Source of the DNA: Hexactinellida sp. DTS-2022
Lineage: Eukaryota > Porifera > Hexactinellida
Direction: 5' to 3'
Assembly (NCBI GenBank): GCA_028753945.1
Contig: JAPNXP010000001.1
Location: 2,470,501 to 2,534,500, forward strand
Length of the DNA stretch: 64,000 nt
The notes below the pieces were generated by a model that was not told the DNA's origin, searched no databases, and saw only the letters and a program-made list of their open reading frames with translations. Both the position numbers and the translations under genes were made by a program. Positions 8,301-48,861 of the stretch are shown here, in pieces (position 1 is the first letter of the stretch; the number at the start of each line of letters is the position of its first letter).

Positions 8301-8383
8301 TTATTTATTACTCTGCATTCATTGTAGAAATAGTATGAGACAGTTATAATAATTGAGTAATTAGCATGTTATTGATTTCTTAA

Positions 8384-10654: not shown

Positions 10655-10814
10655 AGATGTAAATGATCAAAATTGGAAATATAGTAAGTCTGAAAATCAG
10701 TGTTATATAATCTCAAGTATTGGTTAATCTATTTATTATATAAATTATATCTCTACATCTGACTTATAAGTATTCAAAGTGTATATATTAAGAGAAAACT
10801 ATAGTATTTGTGGA

Positions 10815-10910
10815 ATTAGCATGTAATTGATGAATCTTTCTAAATCAGAATTGCTTCATCCGAGTATTCAGAATCAGTCAGTTCTATTCATTCTTCATTA
10901 TGCTACCTGA
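10815..10910. repeat. Direct duplicate of the transposase 3' end
   Basis: About 95 bp matching 8358-8470 in the same orientation: TAGCATGT-ATTGAT, then CATCCGAGTATTCAGAATCAGT, then a TTCTATTC/TTCTTCAT block. The stop-codon end of the gene is thus repeated between the gene's ATG and the right inverted arm. Confidence 0.75.
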
Positions 10911-11004
10911 TTTCTTTTCAAAACAGGCATTTGTATTATATTTTTCATCACCCGTATTGATTGTAAATGTTTTCTGGCTTCGTTAAAGAGTAAGAAAAAG
11001 TGGC

Positions 11005-11527
11005 CATAGAAATTACAGAATATTTTCCGTCCGAAATATAAGATTATCACATTTGATTCCTATCTAAACTTATTTAAGAATAACCTATTATTGTACTAAT
11101 TATGTGTTTCTATTAAAATATTAAGTTTTAAATAAGTAGAGTTTTAAATATAGTGTGATAATAGCCCAGATAATTAGCTAATAAAGATACTTTTGTGTCT
11201 CAGAGAAATAGAGGTTAATAGTTGACTGACAAATCCTAAACTTGGCTAGGAATTTAGAAAATACATAAATATATACCATATATCATAGTTATTAATAATT
11301 CTTGAATAAATATGTAGATATAATATATATTAAATGAAAAATAAACAAATTTTCTTTGTCCCCAAAATAATGACGTCACTAATAAAATCAAAATATATAA
11401 AAATTTTGACGTCACCAGAGTGAGATAAACTTGGATTCCTATTCTATGGACATCAAGGAACGTGGTTTATAAGGTGGTTTGCGTTGGTAATTTTTCTTAA
11501 TATTTCGTAAATATATTACACCCGTGA
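11005..11527. repeat. Right long terminal inverted repeat
   Basis: Inverted counterpart of 7772-8300 (see that entry). It ends ACACCCGTGA at 11527, followed by the GCTA duplicate. Confidence 0.85.
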
Positions 11528-12675: not shown

Positions 12676-13791
12676 ATGGCTTCGAGTTCATACGATGCAG
12701 GACAACACTCTGCCACATCATCTACAGTTGCTATTTCACGAGGTGGGAGAGCAATTTCAAATGAATTACGGCAAAGACTTATCGGTGCCCACGAGTCGGG
12801 AGTAACCTATAAACAGATGACCAGATTTTTTGGCGTTAAGAAGGATACCGCTTACAGAATTTGTAGCACCAGACAATATTCTACCAAACTTCGCGGTGGT
12901 CCAAGAGGAAAAAAGTTGGACGAGGATTCGAAAAGTCTTCTCTTAATTTCCATTGAAGCCCGTCCCGATATCACTCTTGGCGAGATGAGAAATAAACTAA
13001 TTCTCGAACGAGGGATAACTGTTTCGATATCTACGATCGCTCGGTGTCTTGAAGGATGCTTAATTACAGTAAAAAAACTTGAATTACTTCCGAGTGTACG
13101 TAATTCACCCGCAAACATGGATTGTAGAAGAACTCATGCTCTATGGTTGCAAGAACAGCATGAAATAGGAGCAAGATTCTGTTACGTTGACGAGTGTGGA
13201 TTTGGCTTATATACCGCTCGGAATCGTGGTCGATCAATTCAAGGATTGCCAGCTCGAAGGGTTGCTGACAATCAACGAACTCCCCATGTCACTCTGATAT
13301 GTGCTATCTGTCCAGGTGTTGGACTCGTCCATTCAAAGATCCTATTCGGAGGTGCTAAACAAACACATTTTGATCAATTTATAAGTGAATTATTCCATCT
13401 CTCGTTTGGTTTGGCATTGGAACCAAGTAGCTCAGTTGACACGGCATTTATCGTACTTGACAACGCTCCTTGTCACCGTGGGATTGAAAATAGACTTGAA
13501 GCTTCTATCCCTTCACACATCGAATTGAAACGCCTCCCTCCATACAGTTGCGAGTTGAATCCGATTGAGTTGTGCTTCCAAAGTCTAAAATCCTATATAA
13601 AACGAACTCTCAGCGCTCAAGGACCAATTATACCAATTGAGGGCCAAACTATGGTAAGTGCAAGGAGAGATAAACTATTGCAATTATGCCCAAATGCTTT
13701 GGCTCAAATTACTCCAGCAACTTGCCTGAATTCGTTCTACCATGTATTGACAGCAACAGTTCCGAGAGCAATACGCCTTGAAAATCTCTAG
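12676..13791 (+). CDS. Tc1/mariner (IS630-like) transposase, DD35E spacing
   Basis: 371 aa, start ATG at 12676. The N-terminal third holds a helix-turn-helix region (SNELRQRLIGAHESG...YKQMTRFFGV) for end recognition. The catalytic triad of the RNase H fold is visible: Asp172 in YVDECGFGL, Asp262 in VLDNAPCHRG and Glu298 in ELNPIE, with 35 residues between the last two. The RGRSIQG motif follows the first Asp, as in Tc1/IS630 proteins. Length is normal for the family. The frame is intact and sits centrally between matching ends with a TA duplication, so the element may be active or recently active. Confidence 0.92.
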   Translation: MASSSYDAGQHSATSSTVAISRGGRAISNELRQRLIGAHESGVTYKQMTRFFGVKKDTAYRICSTRQYSTKLRGGPRGKKLDEDSKSLLLISIEARPDITLGEMRNKLILERGITVSISTIARCLEGCLITVKKLELLPSVRNSPANMDCRRTHALWLQEQHEIGARFCYVDECGFGLYTARNRGRSIQGLPARRVADNQRTPHVTLICAICPGVGLVHSKILFGGAKQTHFDQFISELFHLSFGLALEPSSSVDTAFIVLDNAPCHRGIENRLEASIPSHIELKRLPPYSCELNPIELCFQSLKSYIKRTLSAQGPIIPIEGQTMVSARRDKLLQLCPNALAQITPATCLNSFYHVLTATVPRAIRLENL

Positions 13792-16376: not shown

Positions 16377-19300
16377 CATAGACTACTTAATACACAGACT
16401 GGCAACTCACCGAAATCGCAAATAAAAAGAGAGGCCAGTTTATAATTTTCACTCGAGGGTTGGACTCTTTATTGAAAGTTACAATTTCGATATAAATGGG
16501 GTAAAAAGTCATGGCGAATCCATTGGGAAGGTTTTTGAGATTCTCAGAGTTGCGGTTTGGGCGCCATTTATGATGATTTGGCATTATTTAACATAAAAAT
16601 AAAATGGCAAATATTTGTTATTATTTAAACTCATATTCTTACATATTCACCTTTAAGTTTTAGCAAATTGCTTAGATGTGTTTATAACTCGCTGAAGATA
16701 TTTTACTGAGAATATTTCACAATTTGGCAATTCTTCGAAAACGAGAATAATATATTGTAAAGCAACCATATGTCATATAAATATTAAATTTACCTTTACT
16801 GTTTACAAAATTCATCGTTTATTTTGAATGATTTTCTTTATTTTGTTTAATTATTATGTTACAGATGCACTTTGTGCCCGCACTGGCCCCGCATCTCCCC
16901 CATGCGGGAGCTTAATATCCATTATTATCCGAAATGTATTTTAATAACCTCTTATTTTCTGTTACCTTTAGTTAATTAATTAGCTGATGCCTTTTAAATG
17001 TTCTGTGGTAAATTGCCGTTTGGTTATATTGGCAGATCTGATCGAGCAATGTTTTCATTTCCTCAAAATGCTGATCTACGACAACGGTGGATCGCATTTC
17101 TTAACCGTGATGGTTTCGAAATTACTTCTTCATCGCGAATTTGTATGGAACACTTTGACTCGAAGTATATATCGTACCATCAGCACAAAACGAGGCTCAA
17201 CATGTCATTGAACCCAATCCCAACAATACATCCGACTACAATTCGTCAGAGCCAAGCCATTATTCCAAAATCTGTTAGAAAACCGCCCGCTAAACGCGTT
17301 CTGCAACCTGATCAGCTTCATCTCTTCAAAAAACGATTCGCGGTCACTAACTTTGACGACGTTGTTAAATACATAAAATCTGCTAGTGAATACCGAAAAT
17401 TCACGCATTGTATTTCTGAAGCTAGTATTACTACCTATCGTGTGGAAATTTCTTCAGGCATTGCTCAGGTGAAAGAGTGTATTCACATTACAAGTGACTT
17501 ACATGTTAAGTTAAGCTTTGAAAGTTCTCCTATACCTCTACCAGAATATATAATGAACTCAGCTAACTGCAAAATTACTTCCTTGGATATGCTCACCAAT
17601 TTGCCGAATTATTGCAAGAATCCATCTCATAATTTTGACATAGATCCTGTTAAAGAACTCTTAAATCTTTGTAATTATTCTCCTAAGGGCTGTACATATT
17701 TTTCGCATGTTCTTCGATTCGCTCTTCAATTACGCTACACATCTCATGCTGCATATATATTTCTACATCGCCACATGCCTCTACCTAGTGTTCGATTATT
17801 ACGCAAACTCAAGTCAAACTCTATTGACAGTCTTAAAGCACTTTGTAAACTTCGAGACGAAGGATGTATTGGTAATGACGTGGTTCTTCTCTTAGATGAA
17901 ATGCATCTTCAGCAGCAAGTGCAATTTGATGGCCAAGATATCATCGGTTGTAATGAAAATCTTGAAATGTTCAAGAGCATTCTATGCTTTATGGTTATTT
18001 CTCTCAAAAAGACCGTACCGTATGTCATTAAAGCTGTTCCAATTGTGAAATTGTCCTCAGATATTATCTTTGATTGGATACTCAACTGTCTCAAGGTTTT
18101 AAGTGATGCCAATTTCCAGCCTCGTTGCGTGATATCGGACAATCACCAGTGTAATATTTCTGCTTTCAATAAGCTCACAAAAAAATTTCCTATTGAGAAC
18201 AAAAACTATTGCATGAGAAATCCTTTTACAGAACGAATAGTTTTTTTGTTTTTTGATACCGTTCACCTCATAAAGAACGTTAGTAATAATTTACTCAACA
18301 ATCGTTTCTTTACCATCCCTAGAGTTGAGTTACCTCTCCTGGATTCATTGATATGTGTTCCAGACGGTCACGTACGTTGGTCTAGCCTCCACAAGGTGCA
18401 TGATTATGATCTCTCATTGGGCTGTCACCTTCGTAAAGCTCCTGCACTTAACTACTCAGTACTCCATCCTGGAAATAATAAGCAGTCAGTTTCTCTTGCA
18501 TTAGCTATTTTTGATTCTAAAACAACAACTGCAATGCGCCAATATCTAATGGGAGACGATTCTGTAACACCAGCATTTCTAGAACTTATGAATGCATGGT
18601 GGCTTATTGTCAATGCGAAGGAGCGGTATCACCCTAACCCGATCGGTAATGCGATCGATTCGAATACTTGTGAGAATAAAATCGTGTTTCTGCGGGGAAT
18701 GAACGAATGGCTTACAACTTGGAAGCAGTCAGAAGCACTCGGTTTTTCCAAACAAACCTTTAATGCTATGATCACAACTAACAATGCTATTATCGAACTG
18801 TCGTCTGCATTGATCCGAGATGGTTATGAGTTTGTGTTAACAGGTCGATTCCAAACAGATCCTCTGGAAAGACGTTTCTCACATTACAGACAAATGAGTG
18901 GAGGTCGTTTCCTTGTTAGTTTGACAGAGGTTCTCCGTTCAGAATCGATTATTTCTTACCAGGCGCTGCTTAAACGCGAAATTGATTTTATTGAATTACA
19001 GCTCAATACTAAAGACGACATCAATCAACAAATTGAGGAGTTTATTTTTGGTGTTCACTCTAACCCTCTTGAGCAGCTTGTTTTATCAAATGATACAAAA
19101 GATGTAGTTGTGTATGTTTCAGGATACATTACCCGTTCTCTCCTTAAATACTCTGAATGCCAAGATTGTTCCGAGCTTCTTCATAAAGATCCAATTGAAA
19201 CTTGTTTTATTAGCGCATTAAATAGGGACGGCCTTCAGTTACCATCTTCAATCCTTTATAGTTACGTAGAAAGCGCGTTTTGCTGTGTTGAATATTTAGA

Positions 19301-19960
19301 AACAAGGATGCTTGCAACCAAGATACCATTGAAACTTCTTATATGCAGTCTACTTAAAGAGCTATCAAACCAATGGGACACAACCTTTTCTTGTGAATTA
19401 CATTATCCTGAATGCCGAAATCGAATAAATTCCATCATTGCTAACTTATACCTTACAGGAATATCAAGAGAGATTAGTGAAACTAGACGCAAAGACCAAG
19501 TGGAATCGTTCAAGGCAAATAATCGTAAAAGTGCTTTGTAATTTTTATAAATTAATCTTCAATGTTTATAACTTTTACTATTATAAACTATTATCTCTGA
19601 ACGAGTACAATTCTATTTGTGACATTATAATTCAATAATTAATGCACTAGCTGATCATCTCTTATTTAGAGACTTCGGCGGTTGCCAGTTGTGTATTAAG
19701 TAAGTAGACTATAACATTTTGTACTATCTGCATATAGTACATATTAAATATGATGCCAAGTCATCATAAATGGCGCCTAAACCGCAACTCTGAGAATCTC
19801 AAAAACCATCCCAATGGATTCGCCATGACTTTTTATCCCACTTATATCGAAATTGTAACTTTCAATAAAGAGTCCAACCCTCGAGTGAAAATTATAAACT
19901 GGCCTCCCTTTTTATTTGCGATTTCGGTGAGTTGCCAGTCTGTGTATTAAGTAGTCTATG
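16377..19960 (+). mobile_element. P-like element, type 1 (copy 1)
   Basis: 3584 bp. The inverted ends start CATAGACTACTTAATAC and extend about 210 bp (16377-16592 and 19749-19960). A perfect 7-bp TSD GTTCAGG lies at 16370-16376 and 19961-19967. The same tips and a 7-bp TSD recur in the copy at 39138-50215. A degenerate second copy of the right tip (GTTGCCAGT-TGTGTATTAAG) lies just inside at ~19680-19716. Confidence 0.9.
16987..19541 (+). CDS. P-like THAP transposase, one frameshift in THAP
   Basis: Cut-and-paste transposase of the P-element/THAP9 superfamily. Translation from ATG 16987 reads MPFKCSVVNCR, the start of a THAP zinc finger (Cx4-5C). The rest of the THAP (RAMFSFPQNADLRQRW...RICMEHFDSKYI) lies in another frame, open from 16998 to 19541 (847 codons). 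Numbered on that frame, the DDE residues are Asp300 (LLLDEMHLQQQ), Asp381 (VISDNHQCNIS) and Glu624 (TDPLERRFSHYRQMSGGR). A VHLIKNVSNNLL block and a C-terminal CQDCSELL zinc-like pair are also present. No other stop is seen. Either a small indel has disabled the DNA-binding finger, or translation uses the inner ATG and yields a protein lacking the first cysteines. Confidence 0.88.
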
Positions 19961-23914: not shown

Positions 23915-24922
23915 ACACGACATTAATATTAAGCCCGTGGGAGACACTAAACACTAATATTAAGGTTAAATTGCGGCAGATTCAGCCAAAAAAACACATA
24001 AATTTCGTTTTGAAGTTAGGTGTTTGATTTTCACATATATAATAAAAGACATTATAGCTAGATCCAAACTGAAAACGAAATAAAGTCATCTTCCATAACC
24101 TTGATTTATGGGCGTGCAATTTTTATGCTAATACAAAAGTCCCATAGGGGGATTTCGTCAGACTCCACCTGAAAGAAAAGTGGATTTGAGTATCTCGATT
24201 TGCTAAAGGCATATTCTGAGCTATGTATCACATAGATCATCGTTATGGGCGAAAGGTGACTGGTTTAGAATTTTGATTCAACCTAATTTAAAAAAATAGT
24301 GACCTTTTGTACTCAAAAAATGAATAAAAAGGTAATTTCTTTGTGGGATATTCAATAAAATGGTTGAAAAAAAATACTGTGTCATAATTCAAGAATGCAA
24401 ACCGACTACCTACTACGTACGCTTATAATCTTTAAATATTGATTCTGAGAACAAACATAGACAGCCACATTGCCAAAATTTATTTTATTTACTACCACCA
24501 CTTTACAGGAAGTCCCTTATGGGATTTGTATTAGACAAGTTTTGAAACCCACAGTAAATAAAATAAATTTGGGGGGGGGCCATTATTTAAATGAGTCATC
24601 AAAATAAAGTGAGCGAACGCTCAATCTATCCTTATTCAAAATTATTGTAGAAAAATTTTTCGGGGGGGGACCATGCCCCCCCATGGCAACGCCCATGCCA
24701 CCCTCCCGCCGCCCCTGTCCATCATGAAATATGATGCTATAAAAATTAGTAGTCTTATCTATTTGGGAGGACACATATATTGAATTGAAAGAATATCGCG
24801 TGAAATAATGTTTTGCTAAAATTATGATGGAAGACTAGAGTTATTTGAGTATTTCGAGGAGATCAGGGATAAAAATTAGACACTTTCCGAGTGGTGCTCT
24901 TCATAACTGATACAAATCTTAA
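23915..24922. other. Intergenic, one partial G-rich repeat
   Basis: Downstream flank of the caspase-ROCO gene. Bases ~24570-24722 hold opposed G and C runs ending GCCGCCCCTG, which looks like the right end of a G-rich hAT-like MITE whose left end is not found. Nothing else recognised. Confidence 0.4.
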
Positions 24923-27900
24923 CTAGAAATATAATTTCTTTCTTAAATGGCTAATGTCCTCAGTGCACTGTGCATATGTTTTGGATAAAAGAGATACCCT
25001 TCTCCTAACTTCTGTCATAATGTGGAGGAATTCCTCGTAACGGCAATATTGTAATACTAAGCAAAATGATTGAATGAATATAGAACCTTGAGATGAATCT
25101 CTGAAAGAAGAGTATCTTTGGACGCTTGAATTACCTATAAAAGTATCAGCTAATGAAGACAAATTTTCAGGTTCTTCATCAATGGATTGAGATGAATTAA
25201 GTCTATTACGAAGAGGCCGAATAGTCGGGTGTAGCTGCACTTTATCCATGGCAGTCACTCCAGATTCAACAGTGATCTTTTGATACCATCTTAACTTCTC
25301 ATCAAACTTTCTGGATAGTTTATATCTTTGAGAATTTAGTCCTGTAAATTTTACAAACTCAATTTTAGAACCTCGACACGCCTGAAGAATAAATATCTTA
25401 GGTTTCCCTGCTAAAGATTTACAATAAATATTTGAAAATTCAGATGTTATCTCATCTCGTGATATTTTCTTACCATCTGCTAACATAATATTATCATTTT
25501 CATCGCCATGGGACATGACAACGCAGAAGAATGAATCATAACAAGTATGGTCTAAACGTGCAATTCTCACCAATTCTCTCTTAAATTCAGCTTTGGTTAA
25601 GTTTTCACTAACCATCACTATGTATTGTAACTGCTCGAATGTTTCACGGAGAGAAATAAGATCCAATTTTGAACCCTTTCTTATCGCAGCATGATCAGTT
25701 GCAAATAACTCTATGTTGACCAAGAATGCAATGCCGTGCGGATTCGAGTTCATCCTATACCTATTATGATAAGTAGTAAAATCCATTGTCTGAGGGATAT
25801 GGATGTCTAAAGGCTTGATAAATCCTGTAGTAATATTTTTGTCGATTAAACTGCGTAAAAATTGATGGCCAGGATTCCTATATTCCCTACTAAGTGCGAC
25901 ATAAAATTTAATTGCCCATAAAGGTCCCTTGTGAACAAGTTCTTCTAGAAGATTATTACTTTCCCTTTGATAAATGAATTGATTGTTAATTGCGTAAATT
26001 CTTTCGGAGGATGCTAGTCCAAATTTATAGAGGAGTGGGGAAAGGTCTCTGAAATTAATATGCTTAATGAAGATGTCTTGGTGATTAAAAATAAACTTAG
26101 CCAAAGCAGTATTATCATAAAATTTGGTCATATAGTCCAAAAGAAAATCATTATCATTAAAAAAATTATTCCACTCAATTTGAGAATTGCTGTTGTAACA
26201 CCAAGACTGTCTGTATCCTGAATTAGTCAACAATAATTGGTCCAAAAATATACATGGGCTTTCCATTTGTTTCAGTTCTGATAGCCTACCACAAGAACAA
26301 TCTAACGCAATCTTCGCCAAGTTTCCAGAAGGAATTAGTTTTCCTTGAATATCAACTATAAGCATTTGAAGAAAAAATAAATAATCCATAACTTCTGACT
26401 TTATATATTGTTTGGTGAAATTATCCTCCTCGTCAGAGATTATTTCAGAAAATAATATTTTTATATAAGGTTTCTCCTTTGTGTATTCAAGAGCAACCAA
26501 TATAAAAGGACATATAAAGAAATAAGCACAATCAAATCCTAATTTAGGTGCAGGCAAGTTTTTTTCACCATTTCTACGGATACAGTATGATAAAAGTGTG
26601 AAATAGAGAGATGCAGGAATAAAACCATCAGGAAAATAAAGATAGAAAGTAGATATGAAATGATGTTTAGGTAGTTGTGCTGAAATTTCGTCAAATGAAC
26701 TAGTTAACAAGTAAGGAACGTAGAAATATTCTGCAAACCCTTGTACAGATTGACAATCAATTAAAATACCAAATAATTTTAGTAATTTTATGATGGAATC
26801 TTTTACTATAAATAGATTCAAAAATTTTAAGATACAATCAAGCATAATGCAAGATAACTTAGCCTCATCTTGACAAATCTCCAAATCTCTTTTAAAAAGT
26901 ATTATATTTTTCCCCGGAAAATGCTCAAACAAATCATTTCGGCATTGTGGCGAAACAATATAATAAATTGAATCTAGAAACTGTTGCACATTGTTAATAA
27001 TTGTATCTTGCTTGTAATAGAAAAATCCTATATCATGGAAGAGATGTAAGAAATACTCCAAATCTTCAGCACACTGACAAGACTCGGCTAAATAGTAAAT
27101 CCTTTTGTAGTTCACAATTGTATACTCTTCCCGCAAAATTACTTTTGCAAGTTCCATCCATTTTATAGGAATTGATTGTTGAAAAGCTATTTGGTCAGAT
27201 AAGTATTTAATAGTATCTTTAAGAGTAGAAATTTCAGCTAAATAAGGAGATTCAGGTAGACAACTTATCAGAAAGACGCCATCGTCTTCATGAACTAAAC
27301 TAAATGAATTATTTCGTTTACTCATATGACACCTTATCGTTTCTATGTGCTTTTCTGCTCTCTCTCTTGGATTAGTTACACAGTCACACTTGCTGAAAAT
27401 TAAGAGTATTTTCGCAGGTCTTTGATAAACATCAGTAGATGCTGATTTACAAACCGAGAATATTGCGTTCATCCAAAATTCTATTGCTTCCAAATAAGTT
27501 CTAGGAACACCAATCTGTGACCTCAGAACATTTCTATCTCGCCTCTCATTTCTTTCTATGATAGGATCAGTGAGTTCCTCAACAGAGAGGTCAATAAGTA
27601 GCAAGTATATAGCTCTAGGTGAAAGAAAGAGAGAATGAAAACTATATAAATATGACTGTCCTGCAAAGTCCCACGCAGTTAGAAAGTCAGATTTTGACTT
27701 TAGCACTTCGCTTCCTTTTAAGGTAGCATTAAACTTTAGAACTACATTAATAGATTGATCAATAGGAACTTTCTCAAGTAAAGTTTGATTATCGTAGATG
27801 TAATTTTCATTAAAATAAATTTTACTATTGTTGTTTGCCACTAGATCATGATGTTCAAATTCAGATTTAGTCGAAAGCATTCGTTCAGAAGTACTAGAGC

Positions 27901-29944
27901 TTAATGTCTGTTCATCAGATACAATATTAGAGGCGTTTGTTGTGTTTGGTCCTAAAGGTTCACATAGATTAATGTTATTATCTAAATCTCGCAAACCTTG
28001 AGTCATATAATTTACAAGCATGTCTTGTTTGGTGTCTTCTAAGTTGTTAACATAGGTTTTTAAGTCTTCAATTTGATCCCAATCATTAGATATCTTATGC
28101 ACCTGGAAATCAAACTTGTTTAGTAATGGAGTGCTCTCTTGATTTTCCTGAAATGGCAAACCAATGAGATGGCGAAGAAGAGAAGTTTTACCCACTCCTT
28201 CAGGGCCAACAACCATCAAACGAAAGAAACGGAAAGGTTCTGATCCTTCCAAACAAGCCAACTCATAAGCTCTTCTGAATTTTTCATTATCCATGTTGTA
28301 TTGAGAGGGGAGACTTGTATTTGAAAAGAAATAAAAGTTTCGGTTTAGCCCATCAATTACTTGTATGAAAGTAGATCTGTATGACCTATTCATAGCACTG
28401 TATATCATTGAATGTAAATCGACAAAATGATTTCGCTCAAGAGCATGAATAAAGTTTACTATAAAGGAGGAGTTAATATCTGATAGTGATTTATCTATAG
28501 CGTGAACTATAAACATGTTTTGGTAACTTTCATGGTTAAAATAAATTGTGGACTTTTTGTTATATTCAAGGCACTCTTCTAATATCATTTGACTAATAAA
28601 TATTACTCTAGGTATGTTGGGGAAAGAATTTGCCAGTTCCTTGGTAAAAGCATTCACTTTAAGATAAGTCTTATCCTTTAGAGAAACCTGATGGGGCTCG
28701 AGATCACATGTAAGGATAAACACCACTACTGAACAACAATTTTGACATAATATCTTGTTTTTATTTATCATTTGCGAATAACTAGATTTACCAACTAGGA
28801 GAATATCTTGAGCAATTTTGAAATTCATCGACTCAAATTCAATTTTAATATTTTCAATTAATTCTAGAATAATATGACTAGGTTTACTTTGAGCAAAGTT
28901 CTGATTCGTTAGAACCATAAAAAGTCCTTGCTGAAGAATAATTGAATTTTCATCATCAGTGCTTTTAGTCTGAATTTTTTCATTTTTTTTTAGATAAAAC
29001 GATTTATTAAGAGTGTTTTTTATGTAGAATACATTAGATTTGAAGGAAACGTGATTATCTAAAGGAAAAGAATTAAAGTATTTATTTCTGATATCAAGTA
29101 ATAAATCTAACAGTTGACATTGCATTGGAAGTTCTCTGAGAGCTTCTAAAAGAGAGAGAGCAAAATGATGAGAGGCGACATTAGGTGGCAGTGACGATAC
29201 ATTAGTAGAATTATAACAGATGCAAGTATTAGTAATAAAGTTTTTCTCAGGTGTGAAGGGAGAATTAATTTGAGAAAAATAGTTAAAGAAAAGGAGAACA
29301 GGTTGAATAGATCTTGACATCGCCAAATGTGTAAACTTGTCAATGAGAGATGGATGAGAATGAAGAGGTCTTGGGTCTATGCACTCATGGACCCTGTAAC
29401 TTAAAACAAATCTGGAATCTGTATTGATCACTGCTTGGCCAATGAAAAAAACAATGAGAGAATTGTACGAAACTGAAGATATAATTGCCTCATCAATCAT
29501 TGAGTAAAGTGACATAAATCTACTAGTAAAAAGTGGAACTGGATTTTCAGTGAAAAAACTAAGTCTCTCATCTCTTACCTCGACAGTGTCCAAAATTTTA
29601 ACATGAAAATTAAATAAAGTAAAAATATTTTCAATCTGTTTCGATTTAATTCTTGCCTGAACAAGGTCTGTTGCAGAAGTTTCAAAAATCAATATCAAAC
29701 ATAAACCAATATTTGATGCTTGATTATCTTGAATACTAGAATCAATAGATAGAGCATCTATGGTTTCAAGTTCTTCGTTGCAACTGAAAGATCTAGTAAA
29801 CGGACTTGGACTTGTTTTGGATTTTAACAATCCAACAGGGAAATCCAATTTAACTATTTCTTCATCACTCTCATGATATAGCGGGGGAGTATCCCCTCTT
29901 GAATAACTAATAAAACTTTCAGATGCCATTAATGTCTTGTTCAT
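24923..29944 (-). CDS. Caspase-ROCO protein: two pseudocaspases, ROC-COR, active-type caspase
   Basis: A single open frame of 1673 codons from ATG 29944. The frame stays open 31 codons further upstream without a Met, and a splice acceptor (AATTTCAG, ending ~29956) suggests an upstream exon. Residues ~75-300 and ~335-530 each follow the caspase p20/p10 pattern (strand-helix, 'DIFF' region, p10 helix), but FFIGQ/FFNYF and LTC/ISQM replace SHG and QACRG: degenerate caspases. A ROC GTPase follows: P-loop G580-S588 (GPEGVGKTS), WDFAGQ at 758-763, SKCD ending Asp854, with a ~150-residue Asn/Ser-rich insert between G1 and G3. A COR-like region starts near 925 (IPIKWMELAK). The C-terminal caspase has p20 from ~1402, His1479 (SHGD), Cys1523 (QACRG), the S1 Arg in AIRKGSKLD, and p10 from ~1610 (SFRDSSQGSIFIQ). 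It is probably a nucleotide-regulated death or defence protease. Domain calls are by motif reading. Confidence 0.85.
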   Translation of the reverse strand: MNKTLMASESFISYSRGDTPPLYHESDEEIVKLDFPVGLLKSKTSPSPFTRSFSCNEELETIDALSIDSSIQDNQASNIGLCLILIFETSATDLVQARIKSKQIENIFTLFNFHVKILDTVEVRDERLSFFTENPVPLFTSRFMSLYSMIDEAIISSVSYNSLIVFFIGQAVINTDSRFVLSYRVHECIDPRPLHSHPSLIDKFTHLAMSRSIQPVLLFFNYFSQINSPFTPEKNFITNTCICYNSTNVSSLPPNVASHHFALSLLEALRELPMQCQLLDLLLDIRNKYFNSFPLDNHVSFKSNVFYIKNTLNKSFYLKKNEKIQTKSTDDENSIILQQGLFMVLTNQNFAQSKPSHIILELIENIKIEFESMNFKIAQDILLVGKSSYSQMINKNKILCQNCCSVVVFILTCDLEPHQVSLKDKTYLKVNAFTKELANSFPNIPRVIFISQMILEECLEYNKKSTIYFNHESYQNMFIVHAIDKSLSDINSSFIVNFIHALERNHFVDLHSMIYSAMNRSYRSTFIQVIDGLNRNFYFFSNTSLPSQYNMDNEKFRRAYELACLEGSEPFRFFRLMVVGPEGVGKTSLLRHLIGLPFQENQESTPLLNKFDFQVHKISNDWDQIEDLKTYVNNLEDTKQDMLVNYMTQGLRDLDNNINLCEPLGPNTTNASNIVSDEQTLSSSTSERMLSTKSEFEHHDLVANNNSKIYFNENYIYDNQTLLEKVPIDQSINVVLKFNATLKGSEVLKSKSDFLTAWDFAGQSYLYSFHSLFLSPRAIYLLLIDLSVEELTDPIIERNERRDRNVLRSQIGVPRTYLEAIEFWMNAIFSVCKSASTDVYQRPAKILLIFSKCDCVTNPRERAEKHIETIRCHMSKRNNSFSLVHEDDGVFLISCLPESPYLAEISTLKDTIKYLSDQIAFQQSIPIKWMELAKVILREEYTIVNYKRIYYLAESCQCAEDLEYFLHLFHDIGFFYYKQDTIINNVQQFLDSIYYIVSPQCRNDLFEHFPGKNIILFKRDLEICQDEAKLSCIMLDCILKFLNLFIVKDSIIKLLKLFGILIDCQSVQGFAEYFYVPYLLTSSFDEISAQLPKHHFISTFYLYFPDGFIPASLYFTLLSYCIRRNGEKNLPAPKLGFDCAYFFICPFILVALEYTKEKPYIKILFSEIISDEEDNFTKQYIKSEVMDYLFFLQMLIVDIQGKLIPSGNLAKIALDCSCGRLSELKQMESPCIFLDQLLLTNSGYRQSWCYNSNSQIEWNNFFNDNDFLLDYMTKFYDNTALAKFIFNHQDIFIKHINFRDLSPLLYKFGLASSERIYAINNQFIYQRESNNLLEELVHKGPLWAIKFYVALSREYRNPGHQFLRSLIDKNITTGFIKPLDIHIPQTMDFTTYHNRYRMNSNPHGIAFLVNIELFATDHAAIRKGSKLDLISLRETFEQLQYIVMVSENLTKAEFKRELVRIARLDHTCYDSFFCVVMSHGDENDNIMLADGKKISRDEITSEFSNIYCKSLAGKPKIFILQACRGSKIEFVKFTGLNSQRYKLSRKFDEKLRWYQKITVESGVTAMDKVQLHPTIRPLRNRLNSSQSIDEEPENLSSLADTFIGNSSVQRYSSFRDSSQGSIFIQSFCLVLQYCRYEEFLHIMTEVRRRVSLLSKTYAQCTEDISHLRKKLYF

Positions 29945-29958
29945 GGGGCATAGTCTGA
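29945..29958 (-). promoter_or_regulatory. Probable 3' splice site before the first Met
   Basis: On the minus strand a pyrimidine-rich run ends TTAATTTCAG immediately upstream of ACTATGCCCCATGAAC. This fits a short 5' leader exon further upstream (coordinates above 29960) joined to the large coding exon. Alternatively coding continues in that unseen exon. Confidence 0.45.
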
Positions 29959-30037
29959 AATTAATAAATAATAGAATGGATCTATACTCAGCACTAGTAT
30001 AACCGCTTTTTAGTGTTTTAAAATTTAATTTCTGCAA

Positions 30038-31524
30038 CTATGATAATCTCCTTGTAACAGAAAATCTAATTAACACCAGTGCAGTGCTATATTTTAAAAT
30101 TTTATCTTACGAAGATATTTTTAGAGGCAGTATATTATGGTGGTTGATTGATAGTGCCCCCACAAGGAAGTAAACACCGGGAGGGCTGAGGCTTTCAACT
30201 CCCAACAGATTTGGCTCATATACAGTATCCCACGTTTCAGTCCCACTTTAAAAAATGTGTTTACAACACTGATTCATAAGAACAGCTGGGATTTACTACT
30301 TTAACCCTTGGCGCAATGTATTTAAAGCAAAAATAATTTGTGAAAGTTAATTATATTGATTCTCTATACATTAATTAAAATAATTATATAAGTTACACAA
30401 GTTATCCCTCGGATACTCTGGTGGTAAAAGTATAAATAGAAAAATAATTAAATTCAATTAAACAACGCATAAGACACAGTGGTTTAGAACCAAAGAATAG
30501 GAAAAAAATAGAATTCGTTTCTAAGCGATTCAATTGATTACTTATTGTTTGAATAAAGCTCATTTCAAATTTCTAAGCAATTGAGTGCCTAGAAGCAATA
30601 CAATTGCACTCCAAATATGCATGATCATTTTAGCTGAAATTGTAGTTCTAGATAATTTTAAATTTAGCTTCACTTCAAATACAAGCGAGAACATTTTATA
30701 ACTATCCATTACGACAAATTAAGTTTAGTTTATACATTTCAAGTATGCTGAAACTGAATAACCTGTTTTCATTAATGTATTTTCACAATATTTCGTTTGA
30801 GAAATCAAATTCTATATCTGTTGTTACATTTGCATCAAATTTTAATTGATAAAAACTCAAAAGTGCCCATAATAGTAAACTTCACAAAACTTCAATTAGA
30901 TATTGATACAAGATATCCTTAACTATATCTAAATTCATAGTTTAAACTGACACGCCCCGAAACAGTGCGCAACATTAAACATTTTAGCGAATTCCATTGT
31001 CACTTTGTGTTGCTATGAAAATGCTAAAACTAATTATTCGCTACTATTCAGTAGTATATCTTATTTGGTTACCCAAATGTATGTAAATATTGTATATTAA
31101 GAACAACTGAGCACTTAAGTACAATTTCATCAATGAGAGCAGCGAACTATGAACTCATATTGGGATTTTGATATTGAAGCAAGTTAGTTAGTTTTGCACA
31201 ATTCGGAGGTTATTTAGTGTGATGCGCAAGTGACAGCTATGCTAGAAAAAGTCATCTAGGGCTTATATGAGTTCTAATACACATTATAATTACATTCAAT
31301 AACCATCTACCCCCTTAACATGAGTGTACAAATCCTTATATCCTTTGGGGGCCGGACTTTTACGAAATATTCCCAATGTTCAAGATATTTTAACAATAAC
31401 TGTGGGTGAGTATTAAAAGATTGTTAACAAACCAAAAAATTTGTGTTTAATTGATTTACAACAAATCGCCCAGAACTAAACATAAAAGAGTGAATACATC
31501 ATTTTTGACGATACCATTCAATTC
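30038..31524. other. Intergenic, AT-rich
   Basis: The 5' flank of the caspase-ROCO gene. No convincing ORF, inverted repeat or recognised element. It would hold the promoter and leader exon, but I see no diagnostic promoter motif. Confidence 0.4.
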
Positions 31525-39011: not shown

Positions 39012-39581
39012 GAAGTATTCTATATCGTGAGACTAACATGTTATCAAGCGATATAGAAAATAGCAGTGGCGTCGAACTAGTATTACATTTTAGGTAAATC
39101 ATGCCGGGGCGAGTTATGGATTTTTTTTAATTTCACCCATAGACTACTTAATATACAGATGGGCAACTAACCGAAAATGGAAAAAAGCCATTCTTGAATA
39201 CTCTCTCTCGTGTAATCTAGTGCTCTTATCACCTAGATAATATCCACTACTAGGTAGTCAGGTATGGCGAATCTATTGGGACCATTTTCGAGGTCCTTAG
39301 CAATGTAGTTTTGTGGTTTTGGCCCTATTTTATGATGACGGTAGCATTATTTCTATTCATTAAACATATTCAAATATCTCGACATTAATTCATATTTTAT
39401 ACTGCAATTCTATAAATTGTTGAAAGCGCTACTATATAGCACTTCCTTCTCTATATTAGTAGTTCAACTTCAGCATGAAATTTGTGTTCATTTAGAGGAA
39501 ACAGAACTATAATACTACAAAAAGTAAACATAGAACTACCATTTAAACAAATTCATAATAGATTCTTTTTAAGCTTGTTAG

Positions 39582-40126
39582 CAGGCCTGGGGTCAATTAC
39601 TCTAAAATGTAATATATTACTATTACTATTACTTATATTTCTTCCTATTACTATTACTATTACAATTACATTATAATAATATGTAATATATTACTATTAC
39701 TATTACTATTACTATTACTATTACTATTACTATTACTTTTAATATTACTATTACAAATTACTAGACATTTACTAAGACTCTGCTATGATTCAGAATGTCT
39801 GAAGTTTATTATTTTAATTGATTATCCCACACAAACAAAACATATATTATCTAACCTAAGCAAACAACTAATTTCAATAAAGTGACAAATTCAAATCGAT
39901 AATCATTTTGCCTTAAATTTATTTTAACAACTTCCTATTTCTTCACGAAAAATCAAATAAGCCAGTCCGAAGTTGTAGAATTGTAATAGATAATTCCTAT
40001 TACAATAGGTTCTATTACTATTACATCCTATTTGAAACACTATTACTTATTACTATTACTATTACTTCTAAAATGTAATCGTTACTAATACAATTACTAT
40101 TACATATTACTATTACCCCAGGCCTG
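39582..40126. mobile_element. hAT-like MITE with (ATTACT)n interior
   Basis: Ends CAGGCCTGGGG and CCCCAGGCCTG, exact 8-bp TSD CTTGTTAG (39574-39581, 40127-40134). It is inserted in the last codons of the P-like gene; removing it restores FKANKLKKNLL. The two flanks of the interior are runs of TTACTA/ATTACT iterations (39600-39770 and 39990-40115), with ~200 bp of unique AT-rich sequence between. Confidence 0.92.
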
Positions 40127-41882
40127 CTTGTTAGCCTTAAATGCTTCTACTTGATCTTCACGCCTAGTTTCACTGATTTCCCTTGAAAGTCCAGTTAGGT
40201 AGAGGTTAGCAATAATATAATTTGTTTGATTTCGGAGGGAAATGTAATGTAATTCACAAGCAAATGTAGTATCCCATTGGTTTGACATCACCTCAAGTAG
40301 ACGGTAAATGAGAATCTTCAATGGCAACATAGTAGCTAGGATCTTTGTTTCTAAATACTGAACAACGCAAAATGCTGTTTCTATATAACTGTGGAGGACT
40401 AACGAAGGTAATTGAAGGCCGCCCCTATTTAATGCGCTAACAAAAGAAGTTGTCATGGGATCTTTATGAAGAAGATCAGAACAGTTTTGGCATTTAGATT
40501 GTTTAAGAAGTGAACGAGTAATATAACCTGAAATGTAGGCTACAACGTATTTTGTATCATGTGATATTACAAGCTGTTCGAGTAAGTTACTATGGAGATT
40601 TATAGCCAAAAACTCAGTAATTTTCTTAGTGATAGCATCAGTTGTAGAGTATTGTAATTTGCTATAATCTATATCGTGTTTGAGTAATATCTTGTACGAA
40701 AAAAATAATTCAGACCTAAGAACTTCAGTCAAGCTGACTAGGAAACGGCCACCACTCATTTGCCTGTATTGCGAGAAACGCCTTTCCAAAGGATCCGTTT
40801 GAAATCGGCCAGTTAACACATATATATAACCATCTTGGATTAATTCAGATGACAAGTCAGAAATAGCATTGTTGGTGGTGATTAATGAGTTAAAGATTTG
40901 TTTCGACAAACCAAGTCTTTCAGAATCTTTCCAAATTGTAAGCCATTGATTCATGCCTTGGATAAACTTGCATACCATGTTGTCATAGGTATTGGCATGT
41001 ATCGCATTACCAATTGGGTTTGGATTATACCGTTCTTTCGCATTAACAATTAACCACCCTGCATTCATAAGTTCTAAAAAAGCTGGGGTTACGTAATCTG
41101 ATTCCTTTAGATATTGCCTCATTGCAGTCGTCGTTTTAGAATCAAATATGGCTAGCGCTAGAGGAACTGATTGTTTGTTATTACCTGAATGTAATACTGA
41201 ATAGTTCAGTGCAGGAGCTTTGCGAAGGTGACAATTCAAAGAATGATCAAAATCGTGCACTTTGTGGAGGCTACACCATCGGACATGACCCTCTGGAACG
41301 CTGAATAATACATCCAAGAGAGAGAGTTCAAATTTAGGGACAAAAATGAAACGCCTACCAAGTAAATTATTTCGAATATTCTTTACGAGATGAACAGTAT
41401 CATAAAATAAGTAAATAATTTTTTCTGTCATAGGATTCTTCATGCAATAGTTTTGCCATTGATAGGGAAATCTTTCATTAGTGTATTGAAAGAGGAAACA
41501 TTAGACTGGTGATTGTCCGAAATTACACAACGAAGTTGGAAATCAGCATCATTCAGAATCTTGATACAATTGAGTATTCCATCACATATGATATGTTTTG
41601 ATAACTTGACAATCGGTATCGCTTTAATAATATAGGGAATTGATTTTTTAAGAGATACAACCTTGAAGCATAGAATGCTCTTAAACATCTCAAGACTTTC
41701 GTTACAACCAATGAGATCTCGGTCATCAAATTGCACTTGCTGTTGAAGATGCATTTCGTCTAAGAGAAGCACCACATCATTCCCACAAAACCCTTCATCT
41801 CGAAGTTTACAAAGTGCACTAATACTGTCAATAGATTCTGATTTAAGATTAGGCAATAGTCGTTCACTAGGTAAGGGCATGT

Positions 41883-44800
41883 CACAGTGGGTTATGCACA
41901 GGAAGTAGGGTGATTTTGTGTTGTGTTCGGATCGCCTCGTAAATAACTTAATCTGATTCAGGATCACTTCAAACCCTAGTGAACATATTTTTGTCGACTT
42001 TAACGATAATTTCTGAACTAAATTTTTGATTACATGCCTGCATATTTTGACTATCATAAGTTTCATTTTCTGGCTTCTTAAACTGAGAAATACAGTATAG
42101 TATGTATTGAATAGGCATTGTTTTCTGGTTTCCTCTAATTTTCACCAGTGATATTTATGGCTATTATGATTTCAAATATTTGCTTTAGATGATCAAATGA
42201 CGGTACTAGGTAGTGCACAATTGTTTCAAAATTTCAAAAATTATATACATTCGGACCTTTAGCCCCCTGGCTTATTAGTAACGAAACTTATAGTGCAGCA
42301 TCGTGCCGTTTTTATTGTCATATATTTTTCAAGTAGTCACCCGAATATCTCTAAATTAGAACTGTTTCCAGCCCCGCACAACCCCGCACAGTCACTCATT
42401 TTTGGAATTCCACGAGGAGACCTGGAGTTTACCGTTTTATTAAAAAAAAATTAATTCAATTATATTAGATATCAGTCTTCATTATAATGAATAATAAGGA
42501 AGCATGGGATTACCTGCAATCTAAAGAGTCAGAACGAGCTGCTGCCTTGTCATTTGTACTCGACTTTCAGTTGGATGAAGGAGAATTATGCAATCTTCGA
42601 TATAAATTCTCTAATCTCAAATCTACTCGAGAGTATGCAAGCAAGAAAACAGACCAACCAATGTGGGAAGACTTGCTATTTTATTCCTTCTTACCCACTA
42701 GTCCACCTAAGAAACGTTTAACAGAGGGGAAAATCATAATTGAATCAGATCTATCATTAGAACCAAGGAAACCTCTTTCCCAAATAACCTTAAAAGCCTT
42801 AAGAACTAGACTAAGTCCTCTTCTAATTCTTATTGAAACAATTGCTAATAAAGAAGGAGTTGATTCCAAAACAATATCCGCTTATGCATTAATGCTTATT
42901 TCTAATGAATCGAAAGATGTAAATACCTCTCATATTTGCAAAGAAATAATACGCAATGGAACATTTGCAATTGAGGCCATGACCATGCCTATCGATAAGT
43001 CAGCATTTTTCCTTGACCTGCTTGAGATAGGAAGACGAAAATATACAAACTTTAAGCGTCTTTGCAAATCAGAACAGATTAAGTTTCCATCCTATTCGAA
43101 ACTCGCATCATATCGTCATAACATAACTCTAACAAATGAGCTACGTTTTGTACATAATGAAATGAATATAGCCATTGGAATTGCCATATCCTACAGAAAC
43201 ATACTACACCAGAGTTTGTTACGCTTATTCGAAATTCTCCCTCCACTAAAGGATTCTCAATTTCCTTTAACGATTAAAATCGCAGATGGTCTAGATGGCT
43301 CAGGATGTCATCAGATATATAACCAATATGAAATAAATCCAACTCCAAGCACCAAAAATTACATTTTATTCGCTTTTAAATTACTATCTATCATGGACTC
43401 TGCTAACATTCAAGTGTGGATAAATAATGTTCCAAATTCTCAGTTTGGAGTCAGGCCTGTTGTATTGACAGCTCAAAAAGAGTGCATCGATAATGTCAAG
43501 TTCATTATGGAAAATCTAATTAACCCAGAGGTTAAGCTAATTGAACAAGAAGGCTTGCAGCTCCCAGAAGGTCATGTACAAGTGAAAATTATACGTAGCA
43601 TGCTCGATGGCAAAATGTGTGGAATTTTAAGTGGGGCTGGAGGTGCACACTGTCAATTATGCACAGCAAGCTTAAAAGACCTCAAGGATATCGAAATGGT
43701 TCGTGCAGGATTTCCTATTAACAGAAGCATTTCGGATACCATAGAACTATTCTCTTTTGTTGACAAAGATGACTATCTTAGTCTGCCATCCAACAAAAGG
43801 TTAGGAATAACCCACGAACCTATTTCAGAAATTAATATTATGTCGGCATCACCTCTTCACAGTTATACCTGTGTTTTTCGTTGGTTTATGCTTTTAATAT
43901 ATCATTTACAAGCAGGAAAATTCACATGGTCGCCTACATCGAAACATATTGAGTCATCAAAAAAAATTTCTACTGATTTCCTTTTCGAGAAAACAGGTTT
44001 AAGAATAGATCAGCCTTCCAGAGATGGTGGAGCAACCTCAACAAGAAATATTGCACGTGAGTGCTTTTTAAATAAGAACGAATTTATATTTTACGCATCT
44101 TCACTCGTACTACAAGCAGAATTTAGAGATAATATAACCATCATTCAAAACAATCTTTCAGCGATATTAGGTGTTTACAAGAGCCACCGCGAAATTCATA
44201 TCGAGACATTAGATAGTTGATGCAAAGAGACTTACGAACTAATACTAACAGCTTTTCCATGGGCTAATATAACTCCTACTCTACATAAACTTCTAGCCCA
44301 TTGTATGGAATTAATACGAGACTGTAACGATGGATATGGGTTAAAGGAATATTCAGAGGAAGCAGTTGAAGCCTGTAACAAGCTAATTCGCCGATTTCGA
44401 GAGCACATTTCAAGAAAAAACTCGTTTACTTTAAATGTCAAAGATGTATTTATCCGTCTCGTTAGTCAGAGCGATCCCCTCCTTTCTAGCTACCGCAGAA
44501 CCTTGGTATGTAAAAGCTGTGGGGAAATAGGACATATCAGGAATAACAAATGCAAGGGTAATCAATTGCCAAATTCGGATCAAGAAAACTGGTTGAATCG
44601 TTGATGTTAAATTAGCTTGTCATTTAACTTAGCCTATAGGCTCTAGCGTTACATTATCTAGATGATATATCTAACCATGCATTTATTTAGAGTTCCAGAT
44701 GAATGAATTAGCTCTAGTTTAATTGAAAATATGTCATTTAGGAAATTTTTGTGGAAACTATGGGCGTCTAAAAAAATAGTGTGACGTCATAACTCAAAAA

Positions 44801-44937
44801 TAAGAAGCCTTACAAATTTTCTGAGTCCATTTATGGATTCGCAGGTATCGATAACCCATAGGTATATAATACATTTGATAGGTCTATCTGCCCTGGAAAT
44901 ACCTACTTCCTGTGAATGGCCCAAATAAACCACTGTG
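41883..44937 (+). mobile_element. Transib element with CACAGTG ends
   Basis: 3055 bp. The left tip reads CACAGTGGGTTATG and the right tip, inverted, CACAGTGGTTTATTTGGG; both are followed by CACAGGAAGTAGG. The spacer between the CACAGTG heptamer and this shared block is 7 nt on the left and 16 nt on the right. The direct repeat GCATGT flanks it (41877-41882, 44938-44943), i.e. 6 bp as read where 5 bp is usual for Transib. The insertion point is proved by restoration of the interrupted P-like frame. One gene inside, with one premature stop. Confidence 0.93.
42487..44604 (+). CDS. Transib transposase (RAG1-core homologue), one in-frame TGA
   Basis: 705 codons from ATG 42487 with a single TGA at codon 578 (44218-44220); the frame is otherwise open through 44604. 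It shares the RAG1-core landmarks: first Asp in IADGLDGSG (Asp267); RSMLDGKMCGILSGAGGAH followed by a CxxC zinc pair (Cys389/392); a DQPSRDGGATSTRNIAREC block typical of Transib; HKLLAH (His600/605), matching the RAG1 ZnH2 pair; and SEEAVEACNKLIRRFRE, where Glu628 aligns with the RAG1 catalytic Glu962. The second acid is probably in KECIDNV (Glu332/Asp335), uncertain. The tail has Cx2Cx3GHx5C (675-689), resembling the CCGHC C-terminal zinc motif of RAG1-like transposases. No RAG2/Kelch partner gene lies inside the element. The TGA removes the zinc pair and the Glu unless read through. Confidence 0.92.
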
Positions 44938-45996
44938 GCATGTGATGATGTAGTAATCTATATGGGGGATGAGATGTGTAACGTAATTGGAGAGCGAATC
45001 TAATAACACGTGAAGAATATTTACAAGACTTAGGGTGGTAATTACTAATTACAAAGATGGAGGAGTTCTTTAACAGGCTCATAATCAAAATTATGTATAA
45101 AGTTTCTGCAATAGTTTGGTAAATTGGTGAACATGTCTAAAGAGGTAATTTTAGAGTTCACTGATTTGGTAATCTAATCTTGCTAGTGGTATGGAAGAAC
45201 TTTGAAAACTTAGCTTAACATGCAAGTCACTAGTAATGTGAATGCATTCTTTTACCTGAGCTATTCTTGAATTGATTTCGACGCGATATGCAGTGACACC
45301 ACTTTCTGTTATACAATGAGTGAAATTTAGATATTCTCTTCCGTGTTAATATATTTTACAATGTCCTCAATATCAGCACACCTAAATTGATCTCGGAAAT
45401 AGAGGAAGTTGGTCAGACTGTACAACACGTTTAGTAGGTGGTTTTCTGATGGATTTAGGAACAGTTGCTTGGCTTTTAGGAAATGAGTAATGATGAATAG
45501 TGGTATAGGATTCATTGCCATATTGAGTCTAGTTTTGTATAAATGACGTAGAATGTACTTAGATTCGAAGTGATCGATACAAATTCTTGAAGAAAAAGTA
45601 ACAGAAAAACCTTCACGGTTAATAAATTGCATCCATCTTTGTCTGAGATCAGTATTGGAAGGAAATGAAAACATTGGTCTCACAGGTCCATTACTACAGA
45701 ACATTTGTGAGGCATTATCTAATAATCAAAACGAAATAAGAAAATTAGTAAATGAGTCCCAATGGAGACGAAACATTTATATTGTATATTATATAATGAT
45801 GCGTGACCTACGTAACATAAGGCCTAGGCACACAAAAACCATGGATAGTCATCAAGGGTATATTTATATCAAACCATAATTTTCAGAAAATATTGTTTAC
45901 TACTTTTCTTCGTTAGCTGTTCCAACTATTAGTCTATTTTACTACTGATTATTAGCAATTGTCTTCTTTACTGTTCGTTTATCTCCTCATGTTTTT

Positions 45997-46571
45997 TCAT
46001 GATATTCTAGACGAGGCAACTGAAACATTATGTCCATTTCCTGAGAGTTGTAACAGGTAAACAGTGTCACTATCAGAATTCCATCGAATGTAGTTGTCAG
46101 GTAAAGTCATCCTATGGAGCCTTTCGGTCAGGTCCTTGAAGTCAATTATCTTGAACATTTCCTCTTCAGCAAATTGTTCGGCAATACTCAGTTTTAATGC
46201 CTTATCGAACAATTCTTGTTCCTTAGATTTATAAGATAGCCGAGTGGGCTTTGAGATACTGGTAGAGAGGTATGACGGACAACCAGGTAGAATACAAGGA
46301 ATAGCATTGTCTACAAGTTTAGCCATTGAACGAGCTATGTGTTGTATAGAGCCATCAGCTTGATGTATTTCAAAGGTTCGTAAAATATCTTCTTCACGAA
46401 AATGCTTAAAATACAAAAGTACATGGAATTTAAGTCAGAAGTACCCTCCCTGCATATTGTTCGTAGCCAATTGTTCGCCAAGTCTGGAGATGTAGGTATT
46501 GAAAATACTGGTGTATACTCTTCACCTTTGTAATTAGATCTGCAATGAGGGACAGAACATGTATTGGGCAT
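45997..46571 (-). pseudogene. Inverted THAP N-terminus of type-2 P-like transposase
   Basis: From ATG 46571: MPNTCSVPHCRSNYKGEEY, VFSIPTSPDLANNWLRTICRE, then after a frame change KHFREEDILRTFEI, giving the full THAP C2CH set (Cx4C...C..H) and its AVPF-type end. It continues through ILPGCPSYLSTSISKPTRLS to NVSVASSRIS at 45997. The homologous part of the 61.7-60.7 kb copy flows directly into the region that here lies on the other strand, starting near 46660. Confidence 0.85.
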
Positions 46572-48647: not shown

Positions 48648-48861
48648 CAGGGGTGGATCTAGGGGGGGGGGGTGCGCACCCCCCCAAAATCTTTATCCTA
48701 TTAGAAAATTTCATTCTATTTTGAATTGTAGTCCCATTTTGTTGAACACTTGGCCGAGAATATTTAATAAAAAAACTCATCCAAAATTTGCACCCCCCCA
48801 AACTACACCCATCCAAAATTTGCACCTCCCCCCCAAATTTTAGTGGCTAGATCCACCCCTG
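48648..48861. mobile_element. hAT-like MITE with G/C-run arms
   Basis: Ends CAGGGGTGGATCTAG and CTAGATCCACCCCTG, exact 8-bp TSD CTTGAGAC (48640-48647, 48862-48869). A short palindromic GGGGGTGCGCACCCCC sits near the left end, and CCAAAATTTGCACC is repeated at the right. Confidence 0.92.

What the first reader, a model, noticed from the sequence alone, without database searches (positions are those of the whole stretch)
24923..29944. Caspase-caspase-ROC-COR-caspase in one polypeptide
Seen: one 1673-codon frame holds a P-loop (GPEGVGKTS), WDFAGQ and SKCD of a ROC GTPase, a COR-like stretch, and a C-terminal caspase with SHG and QACRG intact. Two upstream segments copy the caspase p20/p10 layout but have lost both catalytic residues. 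Known: ROCO proteins (LRRK, DAPK1, MFHAS1) join ROC-COR to kinase or death domains; pseudocaspases such as cFLIP regulate active ones. Inference: an all-in-one protease in which GTP-driven ROCO dimerisation activates the C-terminal caspase and the two pseudocaspases scaffold or restrain it. I do not know this triple-caspase ROCO architecture from described proteins.
Basis: partly seen in the sequence, partly recalled or inferred. Interest (0 to 1): 0.9.

Follow-up and report, generated by a model that had tools for sequence, protein, structure and literature searches.

The report
Glass sponge caspase with built-in switch
A gene, most likely from a glass sponge, encodes one giant protein that joins an intact-looking death protease (caspase) to a GTPase switch and to two dead caspase copies, and relatives of the gene carry an immune-receptor-type module in place of the dead copies, suggesting a receptor and an executioner fused into one molecule.

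The parts
24923..29944 (-). whole open frame, 1673 aa plus stop (P0001)
29723..29944 (-). residues 1-74, predicted disordered; TPP (19-21) and KTSPxP (43-48) invariant in 7 of 7 orthologue rows
   Evidence: pLDDT under 50 over 1-77; alignment A4
29054..29722 (-). residues 75-297, first pseudocaspase (p20 about 75-223, p10 about 240-297); Q170 and Y222 at the catalytic positions
   Evidence: HHalign 93-97%, model and VIA, residues
28316..29047 (-). residues 300-543, second pseudocaspase (p20 about 300-457, p10 about 474-543); C413 and I454 at the catalytic positions
   Evidence: HHalign 81-98.7%, VIA, residues
27170..28231 (-). residues 572-925, ROC GTPase with a variable insert at about 646-748 (borders approximate)
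   Evidence: Pfam Roc; structure match; identity by domain
28181..28207 (-). P-loop GPEGVGKTS, residues 580-588
27656..27673 (-). G3 motif WDFAGQ, residues 758-763
27383..27397 (-). G4-like motif FSKCD, residues 850-854
26180..27169 (-). residues 926-1255, COR region (borders approximate)
25829..26146 (-). residues 1267-1372, CARD-like helical domain
   Evidence: helices in model; HHalign 95.1% to the segment of the NACHT paralogues that holds their Pfam CARD; no direct Pfam hit
25355..25762 (-). residues 1395-1530, caspase p20
   Evidence: Pfam, PDB caspase-3
25508..25510 (-). catalytic His1479
25376..25378 (-). catalytic Cys1523
25154..25354 (-). residues 1531-1597, variable linker between p20 and p10
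   Evidence: 37% mean pairwise identity against 80% and 84% either side
24926..25153 (-). residues 1598-1673, caspase p10 (S1-pocket Arg1615)

Best explanation
It is a ROCO-caspase of a glass sponge with the order pseudocaspase, pseudocaspase, ROC, COR, CARD-like domain, active caspase. The ROC-COR part dimerises in a nucleotide-dependent way, as proposed for other ROCO proteins. That brings two C-terminal caspase domains together in trans and activates them by induced proximity, as for initiator caspases (recalled). The two N-terminal dead caspases form one closed, p10-swapped unit that senses a partner or restrains the switch; in sister proteins NACHT holds the same place. Shown by sequence or model: the module order, the intact C-terminal active site, the loss of the catalytic pair upstream, and the family. 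Predicted by one model only: the p10 swap. Inferred: the organism's class, dimer-driven activation, protease activity, sensing, and a role in cell death or immunity.
Against: No activity, expression, nucleotide-binding or oligomer data. G4 is SKCD, not the usual NKxD. The swap rests on one AlphaFold2 model with 27 sequences; coordinates and error matrix could not be inspected, and VIA gives only first and last aligned residues. The C-terminal p10 is poorly modelled (block pLDDT 44-71 over the last 74 residues). The close-orthologue N-termini alone (7 rows) gave no HHalign signal (0.5%), P0008 alone 31%, and group C and its subsets 4-80%; detection leans on the second paralogue group and on the joint alignment. 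The whole chain was never modelled together. Seven relatives lack the caspase or the Roc domain in the precomputed Pfam column (P0026, P0028, P0029, P0057, P0058, P0067, P0068).
Confidence: 0.6

Rival explanations
1. cFLIP-like in-cis control: one of the two pseudocaspases pairs with the C-terminal caspase through the usual p10 face, and so switches it on or holds it off.
For: Both upstream copies keep p20 and p10 parts (alignments over 217 and 199 columns to animal caspases). cFLIP is a known protein with an inactive caspase domain (named in PMC8195603; its pairing with caspase-8 is recalled).
Against: In the model the two copies exchange p10 with each other. The NACHT paralogues keep the same ROC-COR-CARD-caspase core with NACHT in that place.
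Confidence: 0.2
2. Integrated decoy: the dead caspase pair is bait for a pathogen's or the cell's own caspase inhibitor, and its binding releases the ROC-COR-CARD-caspase core.
For: The bait position equals the NACHT position in paralogues. The N-terminal copies are less conserved than the core. Several paralogues share a contig-length value, as in local gene clusters.
Against: No ligand is known. Lower conservation also follows from relaxed constraint. Sharing a contig is inferred from equal contig lengths only.
Confidence: 0.15
3. The N-terminal copies are decaying leftovers of a duplicated caspase with no function, and the working part is ROC-COR-CARD-caspase alone.
For: The catalytic pair is lost. 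Conservation there is lowest among the folded parts.
Against: Kept as open frame at 48-56% mean identity in six orthologue rows, with invariant residues such as G169, Q170, Y222, S451 and Q452 in 7 of 7, and detected again in other paralogue groups.
Confidence: 0.05

Closest known systems
Bacterial AP-GTPase (ROC-COR) conflict proteins with a C-terminal caspase effector (PMC8195603, passage read)
   Same: ROC-COR followed by a C-terminal caspase effector in one polypeptide.
   Different: Those carry N-terminal LRRs, and the caspase is one of at least 24 interchangeable effectors. Here the caspase matches animal caspases (caspase-3 and -8, mainly caspase-6 among named rows), with a CARD-like domain before it and two pseudocaspases at the N-terminus.
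ROCO proteins LRRK1, LRRK2, DAPK1 and MFHAS1
   Different: The effector is a caspase, not a kinase. MFHAS1 and DAPK1 were not compared here.
Placozoan ROCO proteins with CARD and death domains (PMC4104024, passages)
   Same: Animal ROC-COR with CARD and death domains and ATPase domains.
   Different: No caspase domain is mentioned (the word occurs once in the main text, inside 'caspase recruitment domain'). Not searched here.
Demosponge NACHT proteins of Dysidea avara (PMC12909245, passages)
   Same: A figure legend lists caspase (CASc) and COR among the domains of its NLR survey.
   Different: Whether they sit in one protein was not seen; the figure and supplements are not held. A possible precedent for the NACHT paralogues that I could not check.
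CARD initiator caspases (caspase-9, caspase-2, CED-3)
   Same: CARD-like helices directly before a caspase.
   Different: The CARD is not reached by Pfam in this protein. It carries its own GTPase switch; that this replaces a separate apoptosome is inference.
cFLIP and other pseudocaspases
   Same: Caspase fold without the catalytic pair.
   Different: Two in tandem, predicted p10-swapped, fused to the active caspase; no DED found by Pfam.
NLR receptors (NACHT-LRR with CARD)
   Same: Eight paralogues join NACHT, ROC, COR, CARD and caspase; LRR passes its cut-off in 1 of 8 (P0062) and is weak in the other 7.
   Different: The window's protein has no NACHT or LRR hit; in the paralogues the caspase is part of the receptor-like chain.

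Membership tests
ROCO (ROC-COR) proteins | Roc GTPase domain | tested here: met
   Pfam Roc 42.1 bits against cut-off 27
ROCO (ROC-COR) proteins | COR domain after Roc | tested here: met
ROCO (ROC-COR) proteins | canonical G4 motif NKxD | tested here: inconclusive
   SKCD in P0001; S/T/N, K/R, any, D in the family rows
ROCO (ROC-COR) proteins | nucleotide-dependent dimerisation | not testable with these tools
   needs purified protein
Caspases (peptidase C14A) | His-Cys pair with SHG and QACxG | tested here: met
   H1479 and C1523 in P0001; His and Cys in 27 of 29 rows, the other 2 lack the domain
Caspases (peptidase C14A) | S1-pocket Arg, Gln, Arg for Asp specificity (positions recalled from caspase-3) | tested here: met
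   R1422, Q1521, R1615
Caspases (peptidase C14A) | cleaves after Asp | not testable with these tools
   bench assay
Pseudocaspases (residues 75-297 and 300-543) | caspase fold | tested here: met
Pseudocaspases (residues 75-297 and 300-543) | catalytic pair absent | tested here: met
   Both residues together in 0 of 25 rows that have both columns in copy 1 and 0 of 26 in copy 2 (29 rows examined); single His in P0003 copy 2 and P0026 copy 1, single Cys in P0014 and P0017 copy 1
cFLIP | tandem DED before the pseudocaspase | tested here: not met
   residues 1-74 predicted disordered; no DED in the Pfam scan
CARD caspases | CARD before the caspase | tested here: inconclusive
   95.1% by profile to the CARD segment of the NACHT paralogues, 20 shuffled controls 0.8% or less; no direct Pfam hit
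NLR receptors | NACHT and LRR | tested here: not met
   none in P0001 at E up to 1; NACHT in 8 of 8 and LRR above cut-off in 1 of 8 of paralogues P0059-P0066
Bacterial AP-GTPase caspase systems | N-terminal LRRs before ROC-COR | tested here: not met
   no LRR in P0001 at E up to 1

The most novel reading that the evidence does not exclude
A single-molecule cell-death receptor of glass sponges in which a p10-swapped pair of dead caspases serves as an integrated decoy for caspase-blocking factors, wired through a ROC-COR GTPase switch and a CARD to the active caspase on the same chain. Paralogues use NACHT as an alternative sensor, so receptor, switch and executioner were merged into one polypeptide in a class of which one member, Aphrocallistes vastus, is reported to have no bona fide NLRs (PMC12909245, passage).
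Probability: 0.13. Interest if true: 0.88.

Novelty: new variant of a known kind. Interest (0 to 1): 0.72.

Why it matters
Animal apoptosomes and inflammasomes assemble a sensor, an adaptor and a caspase from separate proteins (recalled). This family puts an exchangeable N-terminal module, a GTPase switch, a CARD-like domain and the caspase on one chain. A comparable ROC-COR-caspase order is described in bacteria and, in the searches made here, not in animals. It makes testable whether ROCO dimerisation alone can fire a caspase, what tandem pseudocaspases do, and how glass sponges, which are syncytial (abstract start of PMC5684314 in the listing; passage of PMC6040629), control local proteolytic death. 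Three Oopsacas proteins of this family are filed only as Caspase-3, caspase-3 and Caspase-3-like.

Tried and rejected
Considered and rejected: chance or pseudogene (six relatives at 55-75% identity over 91-100% of the length). Separate genes joined by an accidental open frame (Roc and caspase in one chain in 25 of 28 relatives by Pfam; end-to-end alignment of the orthologues). The gene being part of a transposon: tblastn of 46 proteins (P0001-P0031, P0041, P0055-P0068) at E 1e-3 gave matches only starting inside 24000-31000, and none of the eight self-repeats listed overlaps the gene. Direct CARD detection by Pfam failed.

Results against my reading: the 7 close-orthologue N-termini alone gave no HHalign signal (0.5%), P0008 alone 31% and 5%, the P0011 pair 46%, group C 80% and its subsets 75%, 63% and 4%. 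A sequence-profile search of the PDB with the whole family hit caspases through the C-terminal domain only (best stretch of all 60 rows shown, and both alignments shown). Single catalytic-type residues sit at aligned positions in four pseudocaspase copies of relatives. N-termini of the second paralogue group are about 20% identical to the window's, so those columns are approximate. A figure legend in PMC12909245 lists caspase and COR in a demosponge NLR survey, a possible precedent that I could not check.

Led nowhere: search of the window's own genome was answered as busy each time. tRNA and Rfam scans were empty. Literature searches, with papers found: caspase+hexactinellid 29 (20 listed), caspase+ROCO+sponge 10, Oopsacas minuta+genome 43 (20 listed), caspase+ROC-COR+CARD 51 (12 listed), pseudocaspase+tandem+caspase domains 0, glass sponge+caspase+NACHT 1, ROCO protein+caspase domain 2, decoy caspase 2, swapped-subunit terms 3, Roc+NACHT+caspase domain+sponge 1. 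Of these I saw titles and abstract starts, and passages by word search in PMC8195603, PMC7159879, PMC4104024, PMC10280926, PMC10282587 (no occurrence), PMC12909245 and PMC6040629; no paper was read whole and the library holds open-licence papers only. dN/dS was not possible, as no DNA of relatives was fetched.

Full report
Observation. The minus-strand frame at 24923-29944 is 1673 codons and a stop. Pfam finds Roc (E 1.2e-10) and Peptidase_C14 (E 1.6e-43) above their cut-offs, and nothing in residues 1-570 at E up to 1. The C-terminal domain matches caspase-3 chains at E 4.6e-31 and weaker and carries His1479, Cys1523 and the S1-pocket Arg1422, Gln1521 and Arg1615 (the pocket roles are recalled from caspase-3).

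Organism and family. A search with the whole protein found 28 relatives among 6414 candidates. Six are close: 55-75% identical over 91-100% of the length. The only named organism among these 28 is the glass sponge Oopsacas minuta (P0004, filed as Caspase-3, 61%; P0016, filed as caspase-3). The window is therefore most likely from another hexactinellid; this is inference, since the genome search was always busy. A tree of 28 of the 29 rows separates, with starred support, the window's orthologue group (7 rows), a second group (7 rows) joined by P0008, and a third group (13 rows). By the precomputed Pfam column 25 of the 28 carry both Roc and caspase; P0026 and P0029 carry Roc only and P0028 caspase only.

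Wider search. A search with residues 560-1673 found 179 proteins, of which 120 were listed; only the 7997 candidates sharing most words were scored. It added ten rows with both Roc and caspase (P0055, P0056, P0059-P0066) and four with one of them (P0057, P0058, P0067, P0068). The last 81 listed rows (P0069-P0149) carry Roc with COR-A and none carries a caspase. A search with residues 1255-1673 found 25 caspases, the named ones from fish, crustaceans and a snail, apart from one row named only caspase 7 and one only hypothetical protein.

A CARD-like domain. Residues about 1267-1372 form a run of helices in the model. All eight NACHT paralogues have a Pfam CARD above cut-off directly before the caspase (24.4-39.9 bits against 23.9). 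The matching segment of 26 rows of the pseudocaspase groups compares to theirs at 95.1% (88.8%, 91.5% and 91.8% for three subsets), against 0.8% or less in 20 shuffles. Pfam finds nothing in the window's segment alone, so I call it CARD-like.

What varies. Mean pairwise identity among six orthologue rows (P0007 left out, its C-terminus being broken) is 48% and 56% in the two pseudocaspases, 73-79% in ROC, 67% in COR, 78% in the CARD-like part, 80% in p20 and 84% in p10; disordered stretches are lower (28-43%). In the NACHT group the pattern is milder: NACHT and the stretch after it 69% and 63%, ROC 82-93%, COR 81%, CARD 71%, caspase 86-91%. Paralogues P0059-P0066, one from Oopsacas (P0065, filed as Caspase-3-like), have NACHT where the pseudocaspases sit, then ROC, CARD and caspase by Pfam, with SHG and QACRG. 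LRR passes its cut-off in P0062 only and is weak in the other seven. The core is thus constant and the N-terminal part exchangeable, as in receptors.

Mechanism. I think the ROC-COR part dimerises and brings two C-terminal caspases together, and the N-terminal module decides when. Sequence and model show the parts; activation, sensing and the link to death or immunity are inferred.

What is known. The Oopsacas genome paper (PMC10280926) and the Aphrocallistes genome paper (PMC10282587) hold no occurrence of the word caspase in the main text (supplements not read). [quoted passage not shown] its figure legend lists caspase and COR among domains in the demosponge Dysidea avara, whether in one protein I could not see (PMC12909245, passages). 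ROC-COR proteins with a C-terminal caspase are described in bacteria (PMC8195603, passage). ROCO proteins with CARD and death domains are described in Trichoplax (PMC4104024). The one paper found with glass sponge, caspase and NACHT (PMC6040629) speaks of gene families and NLR origins, not of such fusions, in the passages seen. My searches found no description of an animal ROC-COR-caspase or of tandem pseudocaspases fused to one. Hence: a new variant of a known kind, with an unusual N-terminal module.

Noticed in passing
P0059-P0066 (proteins): Proteins of 1717-1747 aa join NACHT, ROC, CARD and caspase by Pfam in one chain, with weak LRR matches (above cut-off in P0062 only); Oopsacas P0065 is filed only as Caspase-3-like. 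Possibly as interesting as the finding itself.
   Followed up: partly
   Followed up: no
   Followed up: no
29723-29944: Residues 1-74 are predicted disordered but keep invariant TPP and KTSPxP motifs in 7 of 7 orthologue rows, possible proline-directed phosphorylation sites.
   Followed up: no
16377-19960: P-element-like transposon with terminal inverted repeats of about 220 bases (96%), a 7-base flanking duplication GTTCAGG and an 847-aa frame with THAP and TNP-like RNase H matches.
   Followed up: partly
39138-50215: Inverted repeats of about 320 bases (93%) that begin like those of the element above, with a 7-base duplication TTTCACC, enclose 11 kb that holds further transposase frames.
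   Followed up: partly
42487-44220: 577-aa frame with no Pfam hit matches a solved DNA transposase (6pqn, E 2.3e-7), which I recall as the Transib, RAG1-related enzyme.
   Followed up: partly
7775-11527: Inverted repeats of about 540 bases (94%) flank a 756-aa frame (8384-10654, minus) with no Pfam match at E up to 1 and no PDB match at E up to 0.1: an unclassified DNA transposon, by inference.
   Followed up: partly
12676-13791: 371-aa transposase frame with DDE_3 and weak HTH matches, of Tc1/mariner type by my reading.
   Followed up: no
52158-53123: Frame with a MULE transposase match followed by a RING finger.
   Followed up: no
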